Assembly: GCF_025024155.1 (NCBI RefSeq)
Contig: NW_026251744.1
Coordinates: 124,001-188,000, forward strand
Direction of reading: 5' to 3'
Source of the DNA: Gamsiella multidivaricata
Taxonomy: Eukaryota; Mortierellomycota; Mortierellomycetes; Mortierellales; Mortierellaceae
DNA: 64,000 nucleotides
Shown one piece after another: positions 27,881 through 54,276 of this stretch; position 1 is the stretch's first letter; each line of letters begins with the position of its first letter. The position numbers and the translations under genes are program-made. The notes under the pieces were generated by a model that was not told where the DNA came from, made no database searches, and saw only the letters and a list, made by a program, of their open reading frames with translations.

Positions 27881-28277
27881 TGTTTCGAGCATAAAAGATT
27901 TTTTTTTTTTTTTTATTTTTTATAACAACTTGTCTCTCGAGTCAATTGACTCTGCGAATCTATCAGACTAACTAGCAAAGATCTACTATCGCTGTCCTCA
28001 CCACCAAAGCGGAACCGATCCACAGTCGCCAAAAGACAGGTCACATTCCCCGGGCCTGCCCCTAGGGCCTGCGCAACAATTGCCACACCTCATCAGTGTG
28101 TTAAAAGCTGAAAACACCTTATTACAAGAAGGGTATCTTCCCCATCCCCTCCATAGTTGTCAACCGCCTCCTCCCTTGCAGGCAATCCAGCAGTGTCCGA
28201 TCCGCTGCGTCTGGGTCAAGCACGGGGCCAGGGCAGCTCCCGTTTACATGGTCAGCGAGTGTTTCGAGCATAAAAGA
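27881..28277 (-). mobile_element. LINE 3'-end fragment (copy A) with perfect 18-bp target-site duplication
   Basis: Element body 27899-28259, in minus orientation: a poly(A) tail appears as the T run at 27899-27914. It is flanked on both sides by tgtttcgagcataaaaga (27881-27898 and 28260-28277). The body matches the 3' end of a second element at 28618-28957 (ctgcgaatctatcagac..., ccgcctcctcccttgcaggc...). This is the structure expected of a severely 5'-truncated, target-primed retroposition. It lies about 105 bp upstream of the tRNA-like gene at 28365. No intact protein is encoded. Confidence 0.75.
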
Positions 28278-28364
28278 CAAAGAGAACATGAAAAAAAATA
28301 CAAAGAAATTGCAGAACATCCAACTTATAATTCTAGTTAAGAAAAACATGTCGACGACACGCAA

Positions 28365-28471
28365 GAAGAGGTGGCCGAGTCTGGTTCAAGGCGCTGCAAC
28401 ACTAATCTCTTGATTGAAACTTCTGCAGTTTACCTACACGGTATTCGTGGGTTCAAATCCCTCCCTCTTCC
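28365..28471 (+). tRNA. Class II (Ser/Leu-type) tRNA-like gene, copy 1, with intron-like loop; possibly pseudo
   Basis: The acceptor stem GAAGAGG/CCTCTTC pairs perfectly over 7 bp. T8-G9 is followed by a D arm GCC...GGC with the A-box-like TGGCCGAGTCTGGTTCAAGG. The anticodon stem CTGCA/TGCAG encloses 25 nt (loop plus presumed intron). The long variable arm has a TACC/GGTA stem. The T arm GTGGG-TTCAAAT-CCCTC (one T-T mismatch) includes a B box, and a T8 Pol III terminator follows. In the loop the usual T33 appears to be C and the anticodon would read ACT, so identity and function are doubtful. The family is Ser- or Leu-type because of the long variable arm. Confidence 0.5.
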
Positions 28472-28607
28472 CTTTTTTTTGTTTGCCGTATTTCATCGTC
28501 TTTGACACATTGCACTCAGTTTATGGGTCGAAATCCTTGGAGGCGTAGTTCTCAAACACGACATAAAATCTACTACGCCCCCCCCCCCCCACCCCCAAGG
28601 TGTATAT

Positions 28608-29406
28608 TGTTTTGAGCTATAACAATTTGTCTCTCGAGTCGATTGATCCTGCGAATCTATCAGACCTCACTGCAATGATCTACTACAGCTGTCCTCTCCA
28701 CCAAAGAACCGATCCGCAGTCGCTAAAAGACAGATCACATTCCCCGGGCCTGTGCAATAATTGCCGCACCTCATCAGTGTGCTAAAAGCTGAAAACTCCT
28801 TGTTACAAAAAGGGTATCTTCCTCGTCTCTTCCATAGCTGTCAACCGCCTCCTCCCTTGCAGGCAGTCCAGCAGCGTTCAATTCGCAGCATCAGGGTCAA
28901 ACGCGGGGGCTAGAGAAGCCCCCGTTTGTATGATCTGCGAGCAACGCATCACACGGACAGTGGTCAGCGTCGCAAATGTATCCATTGCCCTCACTTCAGT
29001 CTCCTCGAGGGCCCTTGTATGTGTGCGCGTTTTATCTTGGCTGTGGTTTCCTACTCTCATTCCCGAGCAATAGTCGCGTCGCAGCGGGGTTTCCAGATCA
29101 GCTCCGTAGCCTGCGTCCCAATAAAGCCGATGGAACTTGTGAATGACCTGGCCCGCGATCGAAGATGGCGAGATAAACAGACTACCCCGCTCCTTGATAA
29201 GGCTGAGGGGTGTGATGCCACGGCATAAATCGCTAATCCTCCAGGTCAGATCCGGAGAGCGGCCAAAAACCTCGTCGCCTGCGAGCAATGACTGGGTTCC
29301 GGCGATACAGGGTAGACCTTGGACGTGGGTCTCGTTGTTAGGACAAACCCCATCGAATGGGTTTCGGCGCAGCAGCGTAGACCCTGGCAGGGGCACCATC
29401 ACGCTC
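28608..29406 (-). mobile_element. LINE fragment (host element), 3' portion
   Basis: Minus-strand element of the same family as copy A. Its 3' end at 28618 abuts tgttttgagc (28608-28617), a one-base variant of the start of copy A's target site. It lacks a clear poly(A) tail. Its translation contains DLCRGITPLSLIKERGSLFI and FHRLYWDAGYGADLETPLRR, which align by eye with the C-terminal domain of the inner LINE (ELYRGLVPMRLIKTWKQLF). It is interrupted at 29406 by the inner LINE and resumes at 35287-35481. Confidence 0.65.
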
Positions 29407-30632
29407 TTTTTTTTCTTTTTTTTTTTTTATTAACATAAATCCCCATGAGCACGCGACGCATGGTCCGCAAAGGCCTTGAAGCCATAGATGCCTTCCATGC
29501 ACGGCAGAGCCGCATCCCCTACCAACTATGTTGGCTTGAGGCGTCAAATTCATAACCCATGTCGCATAGCTAGCCTAACCTAACTCCTGCGTGACCTGTT
29601 GCGCGATACACGTCTCCTAATCCAGATCCAATGTTAATAAAGTTGTTTTTAAACCGAATAACCCCTCCATTATGTCCAGCTTCCCTCGCCCCAAGCAATG
29701 CTGTAGCACCCTATAATCCGCGGTCCGTCTACCTTCCTGGATCTCCGTTGCAAGTAACCGTCTCCCTTTCAAATCAGAGAAATCACCAACACTACGTTGG
29801 TGTCCCCGATCACCGTTGCGTCCTCCGGCGCGTTTGCTCATGAAGGTGATTCCAACTGACTTTTCCCAGGCGACAGTGCTGCGGTGTAGGGGGTCTACTA
29901 ACGGGTTCTATAACTTCTACCATTAGTTCTATTTACAACGGGAGTTACCACGCGAATAGGACTTCGGCAAGGCTGTGCTTCGGTCACTTACTGGTTCGTG
30001 GTGCAGGGTCCTCCTTTAGATCGGAATGTAAGAACACAAAGGTAAAATAGACTAGACGTAAATGGAAAGGAATAAATATGGGGATCTATTTAGCTAAATG
30101 GTGCGAGCTAGGACTATATTCCTTTGGGAATGACTGGGGTAGTTGCAAGGAGTTCGCATATTGTGATGTCCGATGAGGTGAGGAGTCGTGACAATGAAGT
30201 CCACCCCTCTGGAGTCGTTGTATGCCAATAGTTGCTGATCAGGCCTCCGTTGTACCTTTGTAATGCCGTTTCACGAGGGTGGGCCGATGACGGATGCTCA
30301 ATGAGACGATCGGTAATCGGGGAAGCGCTGCGGGGCAAGTACAATGTCTAAATAAGAGCGATTGACGGCGCAAAGGTGGCGAATGATCAGGATCGGCATT
30401 CCCTGTTGATTGTATCTCGTTGCATGGGTTACTGACGGTGGTAGTCAGTACCTGTCGTTGATGCGGTGTTATCCGGACAATCTGGACGAATACAATGTGT
30501 GATACAAATGATTTTGGTGGAAAGAAGACTCTGGTTCAGGTACCAGACCGTTTATTCTTTTATTCTGGGGGCGGTGCTCTTCCCCGTGATCTAATATTAA
30601 CTTTGCAAGAACAACCAACTGATTCTCATTTA

Positions 30633-31208
30633 CTACACCACAGTGCCCTCGCATCGTTTGTTCCATATCTTGGTCCTGCCAAACTCTTCGATCCTGCTCA
30701 CGAACTTTGTCACCATGATCGTCGCAATCCACTTGGTGGTGGTAAATAGCTGCTTCCAGGTCTTAATGAGTCTCATTGGCACCAAACCTCGGTATAACTC
30801 CTTGACCTCCCAATCTGCCTCACTCTCCGGCTCCTCTCCTTCCGCAACCCGATATGTCCCTCGTCTTTCCGCCGTCCCCTGAATCCACTGCATTGACTTC
30901 CAGATAGCCTTCGTTCCTGTTGCCGAGAAGTTGGGACAAGTCGCAGTGAAGGGCTTGTCCTTCCGTTCGGCCTTCTCTCTCTCCTGTTCCCATTTTCGCA
31001 CTGCCTGCCTCCATGCACAATATCCATTCAACTCCACTTCCTCCACCGCGTCCCCCCACTCTTGTCGCTGGTCGCACAAGGTAGCTGAACAACGCCAAAG
31101 ATGATCGTTCGTCTCTGGTTCCCTCTCACACCTACGACATATGTCCGTTTGGTAGGTATCTGGATGTCGTTTCTTCATCGCCTGCAATGTCGACAAATCT
31201 CCATGCAA
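30633..31208 (-). pseudogene. LINE C-terminal CCHC zinc knuckle and conserved tail
   Basis: In frame with the RNase H ORF after its TAG. The knuckle is C-x2-C-x8-H-x3-C (CRRCEREPETNDHLWRC), usual at the C-terminus of non-LTR retrotransposon polyproteins. It is followed by Trp/Lys-rich sequence ending ...RTKIWNKRCEGTVV. The same domain occurs in the host LINE fragment (CCICDVQDEDNHHLWTC near 35.43 kb). Confidence 0.8.
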
Positions 31209-32132
31209 CTACTTGATCCTGTGCGAACGTAAACGACAGTCTTCCAGGCTGGTGTATAAGCGCTTTGGTGGGTTGTTATCGTGTAAGATCCGCAGCGTGG
31301 GCGCCCATGCTACCGACCGCCAATCCTTGATGTAGGTCCTCGTTCGATGCTGCAATGTCCACTGATAATGGTGCCGTACCGCGGACTGCAGCTTCAGTAT
31401 CCTCCTCAAGTCCAGGTCTGCACTGTGTGTTGCAAACTGTGCGTGGCATTTCAAATCATGGTGCTGCGTTGCGTCTAGCCTCCATAGTCCTGTATCGATC
31501 CCATGTGCTGCCTTGGCAACAGTGTCTGCAGCCTCGTTGCCACGGTGTCCAGCATGTCCTCGTACCCAATGCACAGATATACCTTGTCCTTGTTGCAAGA
31601 AGGCATAATGCACCATCGCCCACCACTGTGCATCTGCAGATCTCAAACGCTGCCTTGCTGTTGCTGAATCCCGCTGCTGCACCAACTCCTTGAAATTGTT
31701 GACGACTGTGAGATTGTCGATGTAGATGTCGACGTTCTCTTCCCTTGGGCTGATAAGAATTGTTGCCAAGAGCCCACACATCTCTGCAATTGTTGACGAC
31801 GCGTATCCTCCGACCCGTCCACTGAACGCCGTTGTGTAGGGACCACCATCCACAGAAACGACAACTCCGAATGCTGCACTGACCTGCTCTGTGCCGTTGT
31901 GAATCACTGACCCATCCGAGCAGAAGTGAAGCCTTCGATGTGTTTGCAAACGTCTCCTAGCTGTCCGAATTTGCTGGATTGTTGGTACCTGGAGCGCCAA
32001 TCCCAGTAAATCTCGCTCAATTTCATCTGATACTGCCGGCAATGGTTGGCGAACAGGTGTCGTCATATTGTCCACCGCCTTGTGCGCATCCTCATGCAAG
32101 TGGTCTATACACGCCTCTGCATCCACATTCAT
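31209..32132 (-). pseudogene. LINE RNase H domain ORF
   Basis: Type I RNase H with all four acidic positions and the histidine visible: HFCSDGSVIHNG, IAEMCGLLATIL, DIYIDNLTVV and VHWVRGHAGHRGNEAADTVA. It degrades the RNA strand of the cDNA hybrid in LINE replication. The ATG at 32132 overlaps the preceding TGA by 4 nt (ATGA). This frame ends at an in-frame TAG (31209-31211, after HRIK), beyond which the same frame continues with the CCHC domain. It is either a third inactivating nonsense change or a genuine ORF boundary. Confidence 0.82.
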
Positions 32133-34225
32133 ATATCTACGATATAAATGGCGTCGTCTTCGTCGTTCTTCTCTGTATCGAGCCCGTCTCTCGATGTCCC
32201 GCAGGCGTGTTGCTCCTCCTGCTGTTGCTTCTCCTGCTGCCGCTCCTCTTCCAGCTGCCGCTGTCGGTCACTCTCTTGCTGTTCTGCCCGCCGCCGCTCC
32301 TCTTCCAATTGTCGCTGTTGTTCCCGTGTTTGCTGTTCTGCCTGCTGCATTTGTTGCCGAAGGTGCCTCTGTACTACTTTCAGTTGTGCCCGCTTCTGTT
32401 TAATCCATTGTTGATCGAGTCTGTGCTCTTCTCTGTCGAAAGCACGGTCCAAGTCGTCTTGATTACGCAGTCGATTGCCTGTCATGTTTACCATAGCACG
32501 TCGAATGTATTCCTGCTTCCTTACGCTACGCTGGCTGAGCGTCTCTTGGACTCGCGGTGTGAAGAGCGCAGTTTCCGGATCCAAGTTGAGAATTTCCTGA
32601 GACGACAGCAAACCGTTGTTCTGCTCTCCATTGTCTTCCTCCAGTGGTGGTTGATCCATCGGTTGTTCTGCATTGTTATCTCCTCCGCCTTCGGACCTTT
32701 CCTCCTCACTCGCAGCTTCGTCGGGCACGCTGTCATCGTCGGCAGTCGCAGTATCCCCTACAGGTAGAGGTGATACCGCCCTGTCTAAATTGTCAACTGG
32801 TGCTGGATGCACAGCGGCGGGCTGTTCATCTTCGTCCAAGTCATTTGGCGCCTGTGGCTCTTCCAGATCGGATGGTAATTCCTCCAGTAGCTCATCAATC
32901 CATTGTGCAGTAGCTTCCTGGACATAATCGCCCCCGTGCACGATCGCCTGCAATTCCTGGAACCAAGGCGGAGAGGCTACCGTTCGCACGTTGAACCGCT
33001 GTCTAAACGTTTGCCAACTTGCTAATTCTGTGTGAGTAGTGTTCAGAATCTGATCAACAAAAAATACTCCAACAGCTCCAAGCCCTATTCTGATCTCTTC
33101 GGTCAGTCTATCACCAATCCAATCCTCAATAGTAATCGCATGCTGGGAAAGGTCCATCTCCGATGCCATCGTAACGTCGAAGGTGATCTGTCGGTCCGCC
33201 ATAATTTTGCATATCTGGCTGATCAAGCAGTGCTTAAAGCCCTGCACTCGTTCTGGAGCCTTTGTGGGACAAACGGTGGTGCACTGTCGTTGTTGGAGCT
33301 GGAATAAACGAACACGACTCGCCCGTCCCACTATGCTGTTGTCGTTCAAACGCAGAAAAAGTGTTGAGATGTGCTCTTCTGCTTGTACGTCTGCTAGGTG
33401 TCGAACTGCAAACAGTCGATTGTGGTGCATGACGCTGTTGGGAGTTGTGGATGCCATCCTGGACTTGCTTTTGCATATCTTCATGTAACGCCCTGTCAAC
33501 TGTTGGAGCGTCGCCGGAGGCAGAACATAAATACTAAGAAGGTACAATATTTTCGGCAGTAGCACTGTGTTGATAACATATGCAGCCTGTCGGTCCGTGA
33601 TGCTCTTGTATTCGAGAATATTGCAGATGGTGTTAACCTCGTTCTGCACATGGCGCTTAACTGGTCCTGTGTTCCCCGAACTGTTGATCCACACCCCCAA
33701 AATCCTGATCAGTCGGTCCTTGTGTACAGCGTACAACTCCTCCGCCGGTGTCCCAAACCGTAGTGGCTCCTCTCGAACTGGGCTGTTGAGCGCCGCCACC
33801 ACAGTTTTCTTTGCATTAATCTCGATCCCGTTTAATGCAAAAAAGGACATGGCGACGTCCAGAATCTCCTGAATATTCTCCCGAGAGTCAGAGATCCATG
33901 TCGTGTCATCGACGAATGCAAATGTGGAGACAGTCAAGGGTTTTCCAGGTCCATTGAGAGTGTATCCTGTGCACGACTCCATCACTTCACACAATAAAGC
34001 GTCGTATGATATCCTCCACATCAATGGACTCTCGACCCCACCCTGGTCCAGCCCGCACTGAGGGTGATAGCCATCCGTGACGCCGTAGTCGGTGATGATC
34101 CTGTTCTCCTTTGTCTCTGCAATCGTCACACATAACCGAATGAGACTTTCCGGGATCCGTATGCGTCGTAGTCCTCTAGCAAGCATTCCGTCTGTCCCAC
34201 ACGACACAGAATCGAAACACCGCTT
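32129..34225 (-). pseudogene. LINE reverse transcriptase, palm/thumb plus acidic and coiled-coil linker
   Basis: Continues the RT after the motif A frameshift: GYHPQCGLDQGGVESPLMW (motif B region), STFAFVDDTTWISDSRENIQ (motif C, FVDD in place of the common YxDD) and NGIEINAKKTVV (motif D/E). A thumb with conserved ILGVWINSSG follows. After the RT comes an acidic Pro/Asp/Glu-rich stretch and then a strongly predicted Gln/Glu/Arg coiled coil. The stop TGA at 32129-32131 overlaps the ATG of the RNase H frame (ATGA). Confidence 0.82.
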
Positions 34226-34245
34226 CATTCCTGAAAAACAATCCA

Positions 34246-35268
34246 CTATTCTTTTTTGAATTCTCGTGCATCCTCCAGGGTAGCTTGCAGCACATAGATG
34301 GGATCCTTGGTCGTGGTGCCCTTGAGAACCGAGAAGTTGGGACCCTTGAGGATATCGTGTTTCGAGAGGATAGCACTCAGTCGACTCGTGATGATGGAAA
34401 AAAGCAGCTTGCGGCCATGTTCCAATAGCGTGATTGGACGCACATCAGCAAGACTACCTGACCACTCCGTTGCCTTGGGGATGCAATAAACGATCCCCGT
34501 CTTCCACTCAAAAGGAACGTCTTCTTGGAGCAAACACGCACAGATCAGCTGGAACAAAATGTAGTCGCCCACACCTCCTTGCTTCAAGAAAAGATCATTT
34601 GCTACCCCTGATATTCCTGCTGCTTTAGCCTTGGGTGATTCTTTCAGCGCCGCGAGAAGCTCTTCCATGGATGGTGGGTCCATCAAGCCATTGTACCATG
34701 TTGGGTCAATCCACTCTTTAGGTTCGTATTGTGCCTTCCATCGTGGGTGATCGTCTAATGGCTGCACCTCCCGCCTGCCATGCCACTCATTGAAGTGTCT
34801 CTTAACGGTGTCCTTCACTTGGTCGCCCTCCTTGACACTGACAACATTTCCGTTGATTGTCTGCTGTACTCTATCAATGACCACCTTCCCACGATGGCGG
34901 TCGAGAATGCTATCAAGCATTTTGCCGGGGTTCCCACGCATCTGGTCGCACCGGCTGTCTATCGCCTCCTTGATCTTTGTGCGCTTGATGCTCTCTCGTT
35001 CTGCCTGCATGAATTGTATGGCATCGTGCCAGTACTTCTTGATGTCACGTATCCATCCCGTCCATGTTTCTTCCTTATCCGTCAATGTCGGTGGGAAGGC
35101 AATGGCTTCAACCGGAGCGCCAGCGTGTTCGTTATACGTATCGATCTGTGTCCGAAGTGCGTTGTCCATCGTTTGTATCGTATCCCAGATTGTACCATCC
35201 ACATTCGGTAGCGTCGCCCTGAAACGCTTGGCGAGTCGCTTCAGTCGACCACAAGCACGGATGATGTG
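34246..35268 (-). pseudogene. LINE reverse transcriptase, fingers/palm part up to motif A (broken)
   Basis: The frame runs from the truncated 5' end through a basic/helical region into RT motifs. PPSMEELLAALKESPKAKAA with GISGVANDLF is the template-grip region, followed by ADVRPITLLEHGRKLLFSII and SRLSAIL. It stops at a TAG (34246-34248) right after REFKKE. Just downstream the reading frame also shifts by one base at the codon for the motif A catalytic aspartate; the next frame resumes with GMKRCFDSVS. The RT is therefore split by a nonsense codon plus a frameshift in the active site. Confidence 0.8.
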
Positions 35269-35286
35269 AGGGGCACCATCACGCTC

Positions 35287-35481
35287 ATGCTGCTTCTTGC
35301 TGGCCTTTGTTATGTGTGGCCGTTCCAACTCGTCCCCACTTATCAATCTGTTGCAGATCTTCGCGCCAGACCTGCTTGTGGACATCGCGAGTAGCGCTGC
35401 AAGTCCACAGGTGATGGTTGTCCTCGTCCTGAACATCGCATATGCAGCAGACATATAGACTCGGGTGGGGGCCAGGCTGAT
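35287..35481 (-). mobile_element. LINE fragment (host element), 5' portion, next to tRNA-like copy 2
   Basis: Continuation of the host LINE split by the inner insertion. It encodes SLYVCCICDVQDEDNHHLWT, a C-x2-C-x8-H-x3-C knuckle like that of the inner LINE. Its truncated 5' end abuts agacaaagagaacat at 35482, the sequence that also lies beside copy A upstream of tRNA-like copy 1. Confidence 0.65.
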
Positions 35482-35569
35482 AGACAAAGAGAACATAAAA
35501 AAATACAAAGAAATTTGCAAATGTGCAATTTATGATTCCAGGTAAGAAAAACAGGTCGACGACACGCAA

Positions 35570-35675
35570 GAAGAGGTGGCCGAGTCTGGTTCAAGGCGCT
35601 GCAGCGCTAAAACTTTGTTAAAATTACTGCAGTTTACCTACACGGTATTCGTGGGTTCAAATCCCTCCCTCTTCT
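35570..35675 (+). tRNA. Class II (Ser/Leu-type) tRNA-like gene, copy 2
   Basis: Same structure as copy 1: acceptor GAAGAGG/CCTCTTC, D arm GCC...GGC, anticodon stem CTGCA/TGCAG around 24 nt, TACC/GGTA variable arm, identical T arm, then a T6 terminator. The loop reads GCGCTA, so the anticodon would be GCT (Ser) with C instead of T at position 33, followed by an AT-rich presumed intron. The repeat with copy 1 extends about 90 bp upstream and, patchily, about 70 bp downstream (tcaaacacgacatgaaatctact). It may be a functional intron-containing tRNA-Ser, or a tRNA-derived pseudogene. Confidence 0.5.
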
Positions 35676-49109: not shown

Positions 49110-52100
49110 ATGGCAAAACTTGAGAGCGACCTTCTCGTCTTCCTTGACGACGATGTCGCTCCACCCGCGTCCGAGGCAGCTCCATCCTCGATGTCGCAGT
49201 TTTCTCTATCCACTTCCATGCGGGTAGCGGACCTATTGTCGAGTTCCTGCCAGGGACTATCGCTATCCCCAGCATTGACTCCAAAGTCGGCAGTCAATCC
49301 TCCTCTCTCCTCCTCTTCCTCTTCTTCCTCTCGTTTTTCTGCTTCTGCTACTTCTTCTGCTGCTGCTATTGCCAACATCGCTCCATCATCCTCTTGCTAC
49401 AATGCCTCGCTCTTTAGCGGTGGCCTCTCCGGTCTCACTTCTAGACCCGCTGTCATCAAGCCAAGTCCAGAACCCACAGCAGCCAAGAACGTTTCTCTTT
49501 CCAATGGATCGACCCATGGTGGATCAAATCAGGCACAGGCGAATTCCAGGGCGGATGTGGAGGTGGTTGTACCCAAAGTCGAGCAAGATCCCCTCCTTGT
49601 GCCAAGACAGTATCAGATCGAACTATTCAAGAAAGCATTGGGCTCCAACATCATCGCAGTCATGGACACAGGAAGCGGCAAGACGCTTGTGGCGGTGATG
49701 TTGATCAAGGAGATGATCCAACGAGAACAAGAGGCATGGAGAAACTTGGCAGAGGTAAAGCGATCACTACAAGCAATGCCTCATTTGCGCTCAAGATCAG
49801 GACCTTGCTCGTTAGGCAATCGAGCTGACTTTTTGCTGGCCCTTCGAATTACATGGAATAGCGTAAGATCTGCTTTTTCATTGTCCACAACGTGCCCCTC
49901 GTCTTCCAGCAGGCAGCCGTCATTCGATCCAACTGTGCGGGCGAGGTCATCGAGATGTGCGGACCAAACCAGAAGAACAAGTTCCAGAAAGACTGGGACG
50001 TAGTCTTTGAAACGGCGGACGTCATCGTTTTGACAGCACAGATCCTATCAGACCTTTTGCGGCACGGCTATATCAAGATGAACAGGGTAGGTGTACAAAT
50101 TATACGCAAGTGGCTGTTATCGGCAGTTATGGAGAGGTGTGTCTAACGGATCGAGGATTTGATTCTTCTATAGATTCACCTGCTAGTCTTCGATGAGTGT
50201 CATCACGCAAGAAAAGATCACCCCTTTTGCAAAATCATGAAGGAATTCTACCACAATACCCCGGAACGGGATCGACCCAAGGTCTTTGGAATGACCGCAT
50301 CGCCATCCATGGACACTGGATCAAAACTCTACCATTCCGCCAAGTAAGAGCTGATATGGTTTTATTTTATTTTTTGTCGTATTGGAAAGTTGTACATGAA
50401 TAACTTATCTACATGAACATTTTCTTCACGCGTTTGCTAGAGAGCTCGAATCGCTCATGGACGCACGTATTTTTACGGTCGACCAGGAGATGGTGCAGTC
50501 TTATGTCCAACGACCCAGCGAGTTTGTTGTCCATTATCACTCACCTCCACTCTATAACCCAACAAAGCTCACTCATCAGCTACGTGAGCAATGCTTCACG
50601 CTCCCAAGGCTGGAATCGCCCTTTTCATCGGTGACCCATAACCTGAAACATCTTGGACCCTGGTGCGTCGATCGTCTTTGGAAGCTGTACCTGCATAGGC
50701 TTGCAGAAGCAAGTAATTTCAAGCAGTTGGATCACGATGCCAGGGCCGCGGTCAACATTTCAAAGTCTCTATCACTTCGGAAGCCGGTCTGCGACGAGTC
50801 GTATTTATCACCCAAGGTTCTCAAGCTTGTCCAGCTTCTGCGGGTCGCCGTTGAAGGTCTGGGAGACGACTTTTGTGGGATCATTTTTGTGGAGAGGCGA
50901 GATACGGCTATGGCGCTGTGCTTGTTGCTAGAGGAGCTCGAAGAGTTTCAGGACATCTTCCGCGTCCAGATTCTTGCCGGCCATGGAGAAGGCGGCGAAC
51001 AAGTCTTGCGCATGACCTTTCAGGAGCAAACCGCCATCATTTCCTACTTTCGTCACAGGGTTTACAATTTGCTGGTCGCAACCAGTGTCGGCGAAGAGGG
51101 TCTTGATATTCAACCCTGCAACGTTGTTATCAGGTAAGGATAGCGACTGAGCTGTAGTACTATTATAGTAACTAGGCCTCTTAAAGCCATGGACCTCCTT
51201 TGTACGCTTGCACTAATGCAAATCTTTCTTTATGGTTAGATTCGATCCTGCATCCACGCCTATCAGTTACATTCAATCTCGAGGACGAGCCAGGAAAGCC
51301 AATTCGCGATTTATCATCATGCAGGAGCTCGACAATCGGGCCGAGGAAGCGACATTCGAAAAAATTAAGTACTCTGAAAAGAATATGAAGGAATGGTGCC
51401 ATAGCCTCGATGACGAGCGCCTCATGCGGAGCCCGATAGACATGGACGACGATGATGTGTTGGACAAGCTGGCGCCTGCGCAAATATATCGGGTACCTTC
51501 AACAGGAGCAATTCTCACCTTGGATTCGGCCGTGGCCCTCGTACACTATTACTGCAGCACCCTCGCAGGCGATGAGTTTTGTTCTCTTCGGCCTAATTTC
51601 AACATCATGTCTAATGGTGCATCGGGATTTATATGCGACCTCATCTTGCCGCCCAATGCCCCCATCCGTATTGTTCAATCCGATCGAACATCGACCAAAA
51701 GCATGGCGAAGAAGAGCGCGGCATTCAAAGCTTGCGAAAAGCTCCATAGTCTCCATGCCCTGAACGACAATCTGCTTCCCATCATGGTTGATCTGGCCAA
51801 GGATGAGAAGCCTGGGGAAGAAAAAGCGGTGGACAACAAAGACAAGAACAAGTCGTATCCAATGGCCTCGCCTACATTCTGGAAGCGCTCGCCTTCACTC
51901 ACGGAGACGATTCCGCTCTTTGGTTGTGTGATGGAACTTACAAAGGAGGATCTGGATCAACTGGGTGGCAAGTCTCGATTCCGCACAATGTGCCTTTTGA
52001 CCTATCAACCACTGCCGTGCGACATTTCCCCGTTCAATCTTTATGTTGAGGGCGCTCCTAGATTGGTCACACTTAAGAGCAGTCCGGTACCGATGCAGGT

Positions 52101-54276
52101 GGATGAGGGACGACGAAAGCTGCTGAAGCAGTTCACGCTCAATCTGTTCCAGAGAATGTGTCGCAAGACGTTCGAGTGTGCGTTGGAGGGCTTGCCATAT
52201 TTTGTCGCCCCACTCACCAAGACTTACGTGGCTGGCTCACCACTTCAAACAGGAATTGCTTGGGACAATGTAAAGTTGGGTCAGAGTCTGGAGCCTTTGC
52301 CGATTACAGAGGAAGACAAGGTGGAGGCATTCATTATGGACTCTGTCGTGACCCTCCGTACCGATTACGGCCGCGACTTTTTTATCAAGAAGATATTGCG
52401 GATATACAGGGTCAAGGATGTGATGCCACCCGAAGATTTCAAGCAGGAATTGGCGGCTTGGGACGTGGCTATCGCGAAGGGGAAGGCCACTGCCCTAGAG
52501 CTTTCCAATGGTTCAGATGCGAGAGCTGAGGGCAGGACATTCGCAGCGTATTTCAAATGGAAGTACAGCACGGATTGCACCAACGACGATCTTATTTTAT
52601 CGGTGGATCGAGTGCGTAAGATGAGGAACCATCTTCAACCGGCTGTTCGTGATGAGGAGAGGCGGGATGATGCCTCTGCAAACATTGTCCCGCTCAGCGC
52701 ATGCATGCGTTGCTCTGTAAGCGCGGACGTACTTCGAATGTCACAGCTGGTTCCTTCAATTCTTTTTAGTCTTGACTCAACTTTGCTTGTGCAGGAAGTT
52801 CGGATGAAGTTCGGGTTTATGAGGACTCGGCTGGATCTTTTACAAGTGGCATTCACAACCTCATCAGCAAACAGAGACTACCAGTACGAGCGCCTCGAGT
52901 TTTTGGGTGACTCTTTTCTTAAGTTTGCATCCACTATCCGACTCTACATAATCAACCCCTCCAAGGACGAAGGACAGCTTCACGCCAGCCGTATACGCAT
53001 CATTTCCAACAGGGCACTTCTCGGTCATGCCACCAAACTGGAGCTGTATCGATATGTCACCAGTATTCCGTTCCATCGCAAGTCGTGGAGACCAACCCAA
53101 TTTGTGGTCGATGGCAAACCCTGTAAGGAGGTCCAGTATCAGAATCTGTCGAACAAGACGCTCGCAGATATTGTTGAGGCATCTCTGGGCGCCGCCTATC
53201 TGAGTGGAGGGGTCACCAACGGATTTCATGTGGCGAAGACACTCGGCATTCCATTTGATGAGTTTGCAGAATGGAGTGATTTCCATCGAGTCTTTTCTCG
53301 AATGAAAATGGCGACCCTGGATAACTCTGAAGACCGGACCAGCAAGTCCATGTTGACAAGAGGCCAACTCTTGAATATCCAGGATGTTCAGAAGTTGCTC
53401 GATTATGAGTTCAAGGATCCGTTTTTATTCGTTGAGGCAATGACACACGCATCCCATATCAGGAACGACTCTGTTTGTTATCAGCGACTGGAATTCTTGG
53501 GCGATGCCGTTTTGGATTTCCAAGTGGTCCGGTACTGCTATGAGAAGTATCCAAGCGCGCCTCCAGGGGCAGTTACTCTCATCAAGGACGCGTCCGTCAA
53601 CAATGCGATTCTGGGTGCGATCTCCATCAATTGGGGTTTACATCATTATCTGAACCATTACTCGTCGACGCTGGTGGGCGCAATTGCCCGAGCGATTGTG
53701 TCACTTGAGTTCAAGACGGAGCAGTCACCGACCAAGACACTGGAGGGCGAGTACTGGTCTGATATTACGATGCCGAAGGTCCTGGGAGATTTGGTCGAGA
53801 GTACGCTAGGTGCGGTGTTTGTGGACTCTGGATTTGACTTTGATGTGATTTCGGGATTGTTTGCGCGTCTGATCCAGCCGTTCCTGGATAAGCACGTGAA
53901 CTTTGAGAACATCGTCATCCATCCAAGCAAAGCTCTGTTGGAATCACTCCAGGCCAAGGGTTGCAACAACTTTGCGTTTGAGAACGAGGATGGCGCACAG
54001 GAAAACAGCAGGAGTCGAACGCTCAGACGTCTGGGACTGGGTGCTCATAATCAGCAGACCGCAGAGGGTGCCAGGAGCATGAAATGCCATTTTAAGATCC
54101 ACGACAAGATCGTAGCAACAGCGACAGGGGATCAAGTAGAGGACTTGCGGAAGGAGGTGGCGATTGCGACAATGGCTCTCCTGAAGGGCGACACAGAGCT
54201 GCTCGGCACCCTGTGCACCTGTCCGAAGAGAAGCGGTGCACGGCACAAGTCTGTCCTGGATCGTTATCGGGAGTGA
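49110..54276 (+). CDS. DCL: Dicer-like ribonuclease III
   Basis: Cuts double-stranded RNA into small interfering RNAs. Exons: 49110-49754, 49862-50086, 50174 to about 50344, 50443-51134 and 51240-54276, all joined in frame. After a Ser-rich N-terminus the helicase has motif [20 protein letters not shown] box [21 protein letters not shown] and motifs [18 protein letters not shown] and [10 protein letters not shown]. The dimerisation domain ([20 protein letters not shown]) follows, then a platform/degenerate PAZ region. RNase IIIa is [15 protein letters not shown]...[14 protein letters not shown] and RNase IIIb [14 protein letters not shown]...[12 protein letters not shown]; the acidic residues are present in both. 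The C-terminal dsRNA-binding segment has [17 protein letters not shown] and [11 protein letters not shown]. It is a complete fungal Dicer of about 1,600 residues. Whether it is the DCL-1 or DCL-2 type was not decided. Confidence 0.95.

What the first reader, a model, noticed from the sequence alone, without database searches (positions are those of the whole stretch)
27881..35675. Two LINEs of one family inserted at the same homologous site, about 90-105 bp upstream of duplicated tRNA-like genes
Seen: tRNA-like copies at 28365 and 35570 share about 90 bp of upstream sequence (agacaaagagaacat at 28275 and 35482). Copy A ends at 28259 just before this block, and the host LINE ends at 35481 just before it. 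Both 3' junctions follow tgttt(c/t)gagc (27881 and 28608). Both LINEs are antisense to, and upstream of, the tRNA. Established: Dictyostelium TRE5 elements and yeast Ty1/Ty3 target positions upstream of Pol III genes; TRE5 is a LINE that inserts about 50 bp upstream. Inference: this fungal LINE family may target the upstream region of tRNA genes. The alternative is one insertion followed by tandem duplication of the LINE-tRNA unit.
Basis: partly seen in the sequence, partly recalled or inferred. Interest (0 to 1): 0.75.

Follow-up and report, generated by a model that had tools for sequence, protein, structure and literature searches.

The report
Fungal jumping genes that target tRNAs
In this soil-fungus genome several families of LINE jumping genes, and short elements that appear to ride on them, insert again and again about 90-140 bases in front of tRNA genes and facing away from them, a habit known for LINEs in social amoebae but that I did not find described in fungi.

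Summary
The 'host LINE' (28618-35481) is a roughly 1-kb LINE of family X, split by a second LINE (family Y, 29407-35268), which itself holds a ~762-bp repeat. Copy A (27899-28259) is also X, with a perfect 18-bp target-site duplication.

The proposed test was run on the window's own genome (37.5 Mb; probably Gamsiella, a Mortierellaceae fungus). X and Y insert upstream of tRNA genes of many isotypes, LINE 5' end towards the tRNA. The 21 young X junctions counted lie 98-132 bp upstream. Twelve TSD-defined X nick sites fall at -80 to -91, with no detectable sequence consensus. Y sits about 25 bp further out. Two SINE-like families (V, W) land in the same zones. Of 21 systematically sampled tRNAs, 17 carry such an element within 230 bp upstream (12 a LINE). 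Nine of 41 resolved X copies and 7 of 18 resolved Y copies show no matching tRNA.

Copy A matches 38 copies elsewhere at 97-99% but the host X at 82%, so duplication of a LINE-tRNA unit is rejected. TRE5-like targeting is supported; how the tRNA gene is recognised is inferred.

The parts
27881..27898 (.). left TSD of copy A (tgtttcgagcataaaaga)
   Evidence: perfect 18-bp match to 28260-28277
27899..28259 (-). copy A: 5'-truncated young LINE X, 3' end plus poly(A) on the left
   Evidence: 97-99% identical to 38 genomic X copies of 276 bp or more
28260..28277 (.). right TSD of copy A, -105 to -88 relative to the tRNA start
28365..28471 (+). tRNA gene 1 (class II with intron, isotype unsettled)
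28608..28617 (.). tgttttgagc, left flank of the host X, homologous to copy A's target site
28618..29406 (-). host LINE X (older subfamily, about 83% to young X), 3' part
29389..29406 (.). left TSD of LINE Y (aggggcaccatcacgctc), within host X
29407..35268 (-). LINE Y nested in host X; poly(A) as poly-T at its left end
29879..30641 (.). about 762-bp multicopy insert inside Y (TG...CA ends, solo-LTR-like), used as negative-control repeat
   Evidence: 11 other places at 97-100%; none of 12 within 10 kb of a listed tRNA
31209..32132 (-). Y reading frame with RNase H
   Evidence: PF00075 E=3e-12
32129..34246 (-). Y reading frame with reverse transcriptase
   Evidence: PF00078 E=1.1e-13
34246..35520 (-). 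reading frame covering the 5' part of Y and running through host X into the flank (mechanical ORF, no Pfam match)
35269..35286 (.). right TSD of Y, about 284-301 bp upstream of tRNA gene 2
35287..35481 (-). host LINE X, 5' part up to its truncation, 89 bp upstream of tRNA gene 2
35570..35675 (+). tRNA gene 2, paralogue of tRNA gene 1

Best explanation
X and Y are LINEs of a mortierellalean fungus that integrate by target-primed reverse transcription at a nearly fixed distance upstream of tRNA genes, in one orientation: LINE antisense, 5' end towards the tRNA. SHOWN: the position and orientation clustering, TSDs mostly of 17-20 bp, poly(A) ends, variable 5' truncation, many tRNA isotypes, no target consensus found at 12 X nick sites, and, read from two X copies, an ORF1 with an RRM and an ORF2 with APE endonuclease, RT and RNase H. 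SHOWN: two SINE-like families use the same zones. INFERRED: the element proteins recognise the Pol III initiation complex (TFIIIB/TFIIIC) or its chromatin rather than a DNA word, and nick the strand pointing at the tRNA about 80-91 bp (X) or mostly 93-119 bp (Y) upstream. Later insertions land between older ones and the tRNA, so upstream stacks build up. In the window, copy A and the host X are independent X insertions at the homologous site of two duplicated tRNA genes.
For: Junctions: the 21 young X elements counted as nearest a tRNA lie 98-132 bp upstream; Y median -131.5 (n=12, range -115 to -286); X vs Y p=4e-5. Nick sites from TSDs: X -80 to -91, mean -86.7, sd 3.8, n=12 (one further T-rich 10-bp case at -122 left out). 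No sequence preference at the X nick beyond background (P=0.52). From the tRNA side: 17 of 21 sampled tRNAs have an antisense X/Y/V/W within 230 bp upstream; in the 16 newly fetched, 12 of 16 upstream against 0 of 16 downstream (p=1.6e-5), LINEs alone 8 of 16 against 0 of 16 (p=0.0024). Position-only test: X 9 of 47 and Y 9 of 29 within 3 kb of one of 63 listed tRNAs against 0.5 and 0.3 expected; LTR-like control 0 of 12 within 10 kb. Domains. Independent copies.
Against: By my hand tally, 9 of 41 resolved X copies and 7 of 18 resolved Y copies have no tRNA in the expected place within the roughly 0.6-1.6 kb held (two of those Y are inverted within tRNA-upstream stacks). Three Y insertions lie 250-300 bp upstream (C24, C1 and the window), one old X junction at -226. 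Of 51 rows, 12 gave no TSD. The one U6 and one weak 5S locus found have no element upstream, so a general Pol III preference is not shown. Contact with Pol III factors is untested. Searches score only the best candidates. Distances were measured on existing copies, so retention could sharpen them.
Confidence: 0.92

Rival explanations
1. One LINE insertion upstream of a tRNA was copied as part of a larger LINE-tRNA segment; there is no targeting.
For: The two window tRNA genes are real paralogues with about 88-91% identical ungapped blocks. C46 has two X-tRNAMet loci with identical junctions and flanks that look like a segmental duplication.
Against: Copy A is 97-99% identical to 38 X copies elsewhere but 82% to the host X. 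The tRNAs are of many isotypes with differing flanks, and insertions have their own TSD and truncation point.
Confidence: 0.02
2. LINEs insert anywhere but survive mainly in tRNA-upstream regions, where they do little harm (retention bias).
For: Some X and Y copies do lie elsewhere (9 of 41 and 7 of 18, hand tally).
Against: Selection would hardly give a 12-bp nick window (-80 to -91, n=12) and near-uniform antisense orientation. Copies about 99% identical show it, and the ~762-bp LTR-like repeat of the same genome does not.
Confidence: 0.05
3. The endonuclease recognises a sequence motif common to tRNA upstream regions of this fungus (several have TGCATTTATAGAA-like repeats), not the Pol III machinery.
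For: Such repeats are visible by eye in many tRNA upstream stretches, and several X nick sites lie in or beside them (C108, C99, C46, C103).
Against: Other nick sites (C35 Gln, C1 Asn, window Ser) lack the motif by eye. The 12 aligned nick sites carry no more information than shifted windows (P=0.52), although 12 sites give little power.
Confidence: 0.12

Closest known systems
TRE5-A of Dictyostelium discoideum
   Same: Non-LTR retrotransposon upstream of tRNA genes in the opposite transcriptional orientation, two ORFs, APE and RT, oligo(A) tail (PMC5911963, passages)
   Different: [quoted passage not shown] X junctions lie at about 98-132 bp and X has RNase H. Host is an amoeba. The passages I saw name no SINE riders.
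NLTR-B of Polysphondylium pallidum
   Same: tRNA-upstream non-LTR element with APE, RT and RNase H (PMC5911963 and PMC5006619, passages)
   Different: 39-64 bp upstream; three separate ORFs; dictyostelid host
Ty1 and Ty3 of yeast
   Same: Fungal retroelements targeted upstream of Pol III genes (PMC5911963, PMC7175516, passages)
   Different: LTR elements using integrase; no target-primed reverse transcription
Zorro3 of Candida albicans
   Same: Fungal LINE with a known target preference (PMC7175516, passages)
   Different: Targets poly(A) tracts, not tRNA genes

Membership tests
APE-type non-LTR retrotransposon (LINE) | APE-like endonuclease, RT, poly(A) tail, variable 5' truncation, TSD | tested here: met
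   X: PF03372 E=1.5e-9, PF00078 E=1.2e-14 (C98 copy), PF00075 E=7.5e-10 (C35 copy); TSDs; truncations. Y: RT and RNase H; no endonuclease match in the Y frames scanned
tRNA-gene-targeting non-LTR elements (functional class) | Insertion at a set distance from tRNA genes independent of isotype | tested here: met
   with exceptions (9 of 41 X, 7 of 18 Y)
[quoted passage not shown]
   X nick -80 to -91, young X 5' junctions -98 to -132
TRE5 (dictyostelid) | Opposite orientation to the tRNA | tested here: met
   nearest upstream X, Y, V, W elements all antisense; one Z-like sense case behind a divergent tRNA pair; two inverted Y copies further out (C104, C35)
TRE5 (dictyostelid) | RT phylogeny within the TRE group | not tested
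   No TRE sequence was fetched; named protein relatives are Mortierellaceae and Glomeromycotina-type fungi (17 hits of 7997 candidates scored)
TRE5 (dictyostelid) | ORF1 protein binds TFIIIB | not testable with these tools
   needs protein interaction assays
SINE (elements V and W) | Pol III-type tRNA-like head with A and B boxes at a fixed 5' end | tested here: inconclusive
   Fixed 5' end: W matches stop at 470-473 of a 600-base query in 7 loci; V at 595-600 of 700 in 3 loci and 617 in one. A and B boxes were read by eye against a recalled consensus; Rfam found no tRNA in V at its cut-off (L080)
SINE (elements V and W) | TSD and poly(A) like the LINEs | tested here: met
   by eye: V 3 of 4 copies with both ends held (C147, C35, C170; not C54) and W at least 3 of 4 (C99, C114, C119) have 13-20 bp TSDs and poly(A)

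The most novel reading that the evidence does not exclude
A fungal LINE lineage evolved tRNA-gene targeting independently of the dictyostelids. Its families use different 'rulers' (X nick about -80 to -91, Y mostly -93 to -119), and the SINE-like riders inherit the ruler of the LINE that moves them: V (nick -82 and -90, two cases) with X, W (-109 and -116, two cases) with Y. Each tRNA upstream region then holds a layered, time-ordered record of insertions.
Probability: 0.45. Interest if true: 0.82.

Novelty: new variant of a known kind. Interest (0 to 1): 0.72.

Why it matters
The 2018 review's table lists tRNA-targeting non-LTR elements only from dictyostelids (PMC5911963, passages), and a 2016 paper calls TRE targeting unique to them (PMC5006619, passage). 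A fungal system with several LINE families and SINE-like riders would make two questions testable: how a target-primed element reads a Pol III gene, and whether a SINE takes its target site from its partner LINE. It would also be a strong case of convergence, with a different distance ruler.

Tried and rejected
Rejected: (1) that copy A is a SINE with a fixed 5' end; one search suggested it because the LINE part of the query ended there, and one search showed the copies continue. (2) That the window RT belongs to the family of copy A; it belongs to Y. (3) Segmental duplication of a LINE-tRNA unit (see rivals). (4) A target-sequence consensus at the X nick.

Rows dropped before counts: one search uses 49 of the 57 tRNAs; left out are 5 with no element, one with only a sense Z-like stretch (C68 Lys), the second C46 copy, and the C166 Gly row (same insertion as the Val row). 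The 'young X' list also leaves out C123:310564 (-183), where the match runs to the end of my library, so the true junction lies nearer the tRNA. The X nick list leaves out C156 (10-bp T-rich match, -122) and the second C46 copy. One search uses 37 of 46 V rows and 22 of 24 W rows, dropping short or weak ones; some W rows are pieces of one copy.
Full report
WHAT IS IN THE WINDOW. Two paralogous tRNA genes lie at 28365-28471 and 35570-35675. Upstream of each is a LINE in antisense orientation. Copy A (27899-28259) is flanked by a perfect 18-bp TSD, tgtttcgagcataaaaga, at 27881-27898 and 28260-28277, so it inserted at -105 to -88 of tRNA gene 1. The 'host LINE' is a composite: family X at 28618-29406 and 35287-35481 (truncated 89 bp before tRNA gene 2), split by LINE Y at 29407-35268 with its own perfect 18-bp TSD; Y holds a ~762-bp multicopy insert at about 29879-30641. 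The window's RT and RNase H frames are those of Y. I saw no clean TSD for the host X; its left flank tgttttgagc matches copy A's target.

THE GENOME. The window lies in a 37.48-Mb, 180-contig assembly. The best protein relative of Y's RT frame is from Gamsiella multidivaricata (89% identity over 59% of the query); other named hits are Mortierellaceae, then Rhizophagus and Geosiphon (17 hits). I therefore take the host as a Mortierellaceae fungus, probably Gamsiella; this is not proven.

COPIES OF X. together give 47 places with the X 3' end, the two of the window included; 38 of the 39 other places of 276 bp or more are 97-99% identical to copy A (only the best 40 candidates were scored per search). 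Truncation points differ widely. The longest copy read, on C98, has an ORF1 with an RRM (PF00076 E=5.7e-6) and a zinc-knuckle-like stretch (read by eye), and an ORF2 with APE (PF03372) and RT (PF00078); RNase H (PF00075) and a weak zf-RVT match below its cut-off were read from the C35 copy. Among solved structures its RT frame matches LINE-1 ORF2 protein (8uw3, E=3.1e-12) ahead of R2.

DISTANCE TO tRNA GENES. In 85 merged stretches, ARAGORN with introns allowed finds 57 tRNAs. Fifty-one have an antisense library element as nearest upstream neighbour, 5 have none in the stretch held, and one has a sense Z-like stretch. I used 49 of the 51 (the second of two near-identical C46 loci and the C166 Gly row, which shares its insertion with the Val row, left out): 44 of 49 junctions lie between -89 and -150. 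The 21 young X junctions lie at -98 to -132, median -107 (C123:310564, where my library ends at -183, is not among them); Y (n=12) has median -131.5, range -115 to -286; V (n=4) -105 to -113; W (n=5) -128 to -142. X versus Y p=4e-5; V versus W p=0.02. The tRNAs include Ser, Asn, Ala, Arg, Gly, Lys, Ile, Pro, Glu, Thr, Gln, Val, Cys, Asp, Trp, Leu, Met and Phe. All nearest X, Y, V and W elements are antisense.

NICK SITES. TSDs fix the first-strand nick. Of 51 rows, 22 have a TSD of 8 bp or more (17 of them 17-20 bp, up to one mismatch), 12 none, and 17 lack the 3' end in the stretch held; three V/W rows without a call there show 19-20 bp TSDs by eye. The shortest ones may be chance. Twelve X sites fall at -80 to -91 (mean -86.7, sd 3.8; C156, a T-rich 10-bp match at -122, and the second C46 copy left out); five Y sites at -93, -102, -105, -119 and -248. 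The 12 X sites aligned at the nick show no more information than randomly shifted windows from the same loci (max 0.62 bits against a control mean of 0.65, P=0.52), so distance rather than sequence appears to be read; 12 sites give limited power.

ELEMENT-CENTRED TALLY, MISSES INCLUDED. By hand: of 47 X copies, 32 lie next to a tRNA or in a stack ending at one, 6 are unresolved (contig end or not fetched far enough), and 9 have none where expected in the 0.6-1.6 kb held (C96, C109 twice, C176, C66 twice, C1:790751, C148, C138). Of 20 Y junctions fetched (of 29's list), 11 are next to or stacked on a tRNA (two of these at -271 and -286), 2 unresolved, 7 not; two of the seven (C104, C35) are inverted Y copies within tRNA-upstream stacks.

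SINE-LIKE RIDERS. V (about 840 bp) and W (at least 570 bp) have 37 and 22 matches of useful length, fixed 5' ends, poly(A) tails and TSDs (19 bp at C170, 13 at C147 for V; 20 at C119 and C114 for W) and, by eye, tRNA-like A and B boxes. V's nick positions (-82 at C170, -90 at C147) resemble X's, and W's (-109 at C119, -116 at C114) resemble Y's; three of these four were worked out by hand. The partner assignment is my inference.

INDEPENDENCE OF THE TWO WINDOW INSERTIONS. Copy A matches 38 other loci at 97-99% but the host X at 82%. One insertion duplicated with its tRNA would make them each other's nearest relatives. The tRNA bodies are identical over their first 34 bases and over 48 bases of the 3' half and differ in between, in the anticodon loop and intron, so the tRNA unit was duplicated and then hit twice.

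COMPARISON WITH THE KNOWN. In the passages I read of a 2018 review (PMC5911963), the non-LTR elements listed as tRNA-targeting are TRE5, TRE3, NLTR-A and NLTR-B, all from dictyostelids; the fungal tRNA targeters in that table are LTR elements. PMC5006619 (passages) says TRE targeting is unique to dictyostelids. X and Y work like TRE5 and NLTR-B (upstream of tRNAs; antisense as in TRE5) but fail TRE5's distance criterion and were not placed by a tree. I file them as a new variant of tRNA-gene-targeting LINEs. Not found in print by eight searches of the held library; other literature was not searched.

MECHANISM. Most likely a protein of the element (ORF1 or ORF2) contacts the Pol III initiation complex on the tRNA gene or the chromatin it positions, and the endonuclease nicks the strand whose 3' end points at the tRNA at a fixed distance; reverse transcription of the poly(A) end starts there, which fixes the orientation. 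Contact is inferred by analogy with TRE5-A, whose ORF1 protein interacts with TFIIIB (passage in PMC5911963); it is not shown here.

Odds moved slightly (best explanation 0.93 to 0.92, novel case 0.50 to 0.45, retention rival 0.04 to 0.05) because the V/W nick positions rest on two cases each, the LINE-only sample is 8 of 16, and one X TSD row (C156) had been left out without saying so.

Noticed in passing
window 28365-28471 and 35570-35675: The two tRNA copies share their first 34 bases and 48 bases of the 3' half exactly but differ strongly in the anticodon loop and intron, so their anticodons may differ; ARAGORN calls Ser(tga) and, implausibly, Pyl(cta).
   Followed up: partly
window about 29879-30641: A ~762-bp repeat with TG...CA ends and a possible 4-bp duplication (GTGC) sits inside LINE Y, with 11 other places at 97-100% identity; it looks like a solo LTR.
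   Followed up: partly
L043, L050, L052, L058, L064, L066, L079, L083 near the element 5' junction: Some 5' junctions of Y or W carry 25-33 nt of X sequence, and one X junction (L079) carries about 19 nt of the Y 3' end (by eye), as if the reverse transcriptase had switched templates.
   Followed up: partly
upstream regions of many tRNAs, e.g. L073, L074, L097, L099: tRNA upstream stretches share, by eye, repeated TGCATTTATAGAA-like words and an AT-rich TATA-like stretch near -30; the function is unknown.
   Followed up: no
L068 (C66:16750-17450), about 180-280 bases in: An X copy without a detectable tRNA is followed by similar TGCATTTATAGAA-like words, perhaps a lost tRNA or another Pol III gene.
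   Followed up: no
L093 (C68:474958-476530) and L090 (C124:174463-176035): Divergent tRNA pairs only about 130-160 bp apart carry no library element between them, as if there were no room for an insertion.
   Followed up: no
[not shown]
   Followed up: no
window 51232-54276: A Dicer-like protein (Dicer dimerisation and RNase III domains) is encoded in the same window.
   Followed up: no
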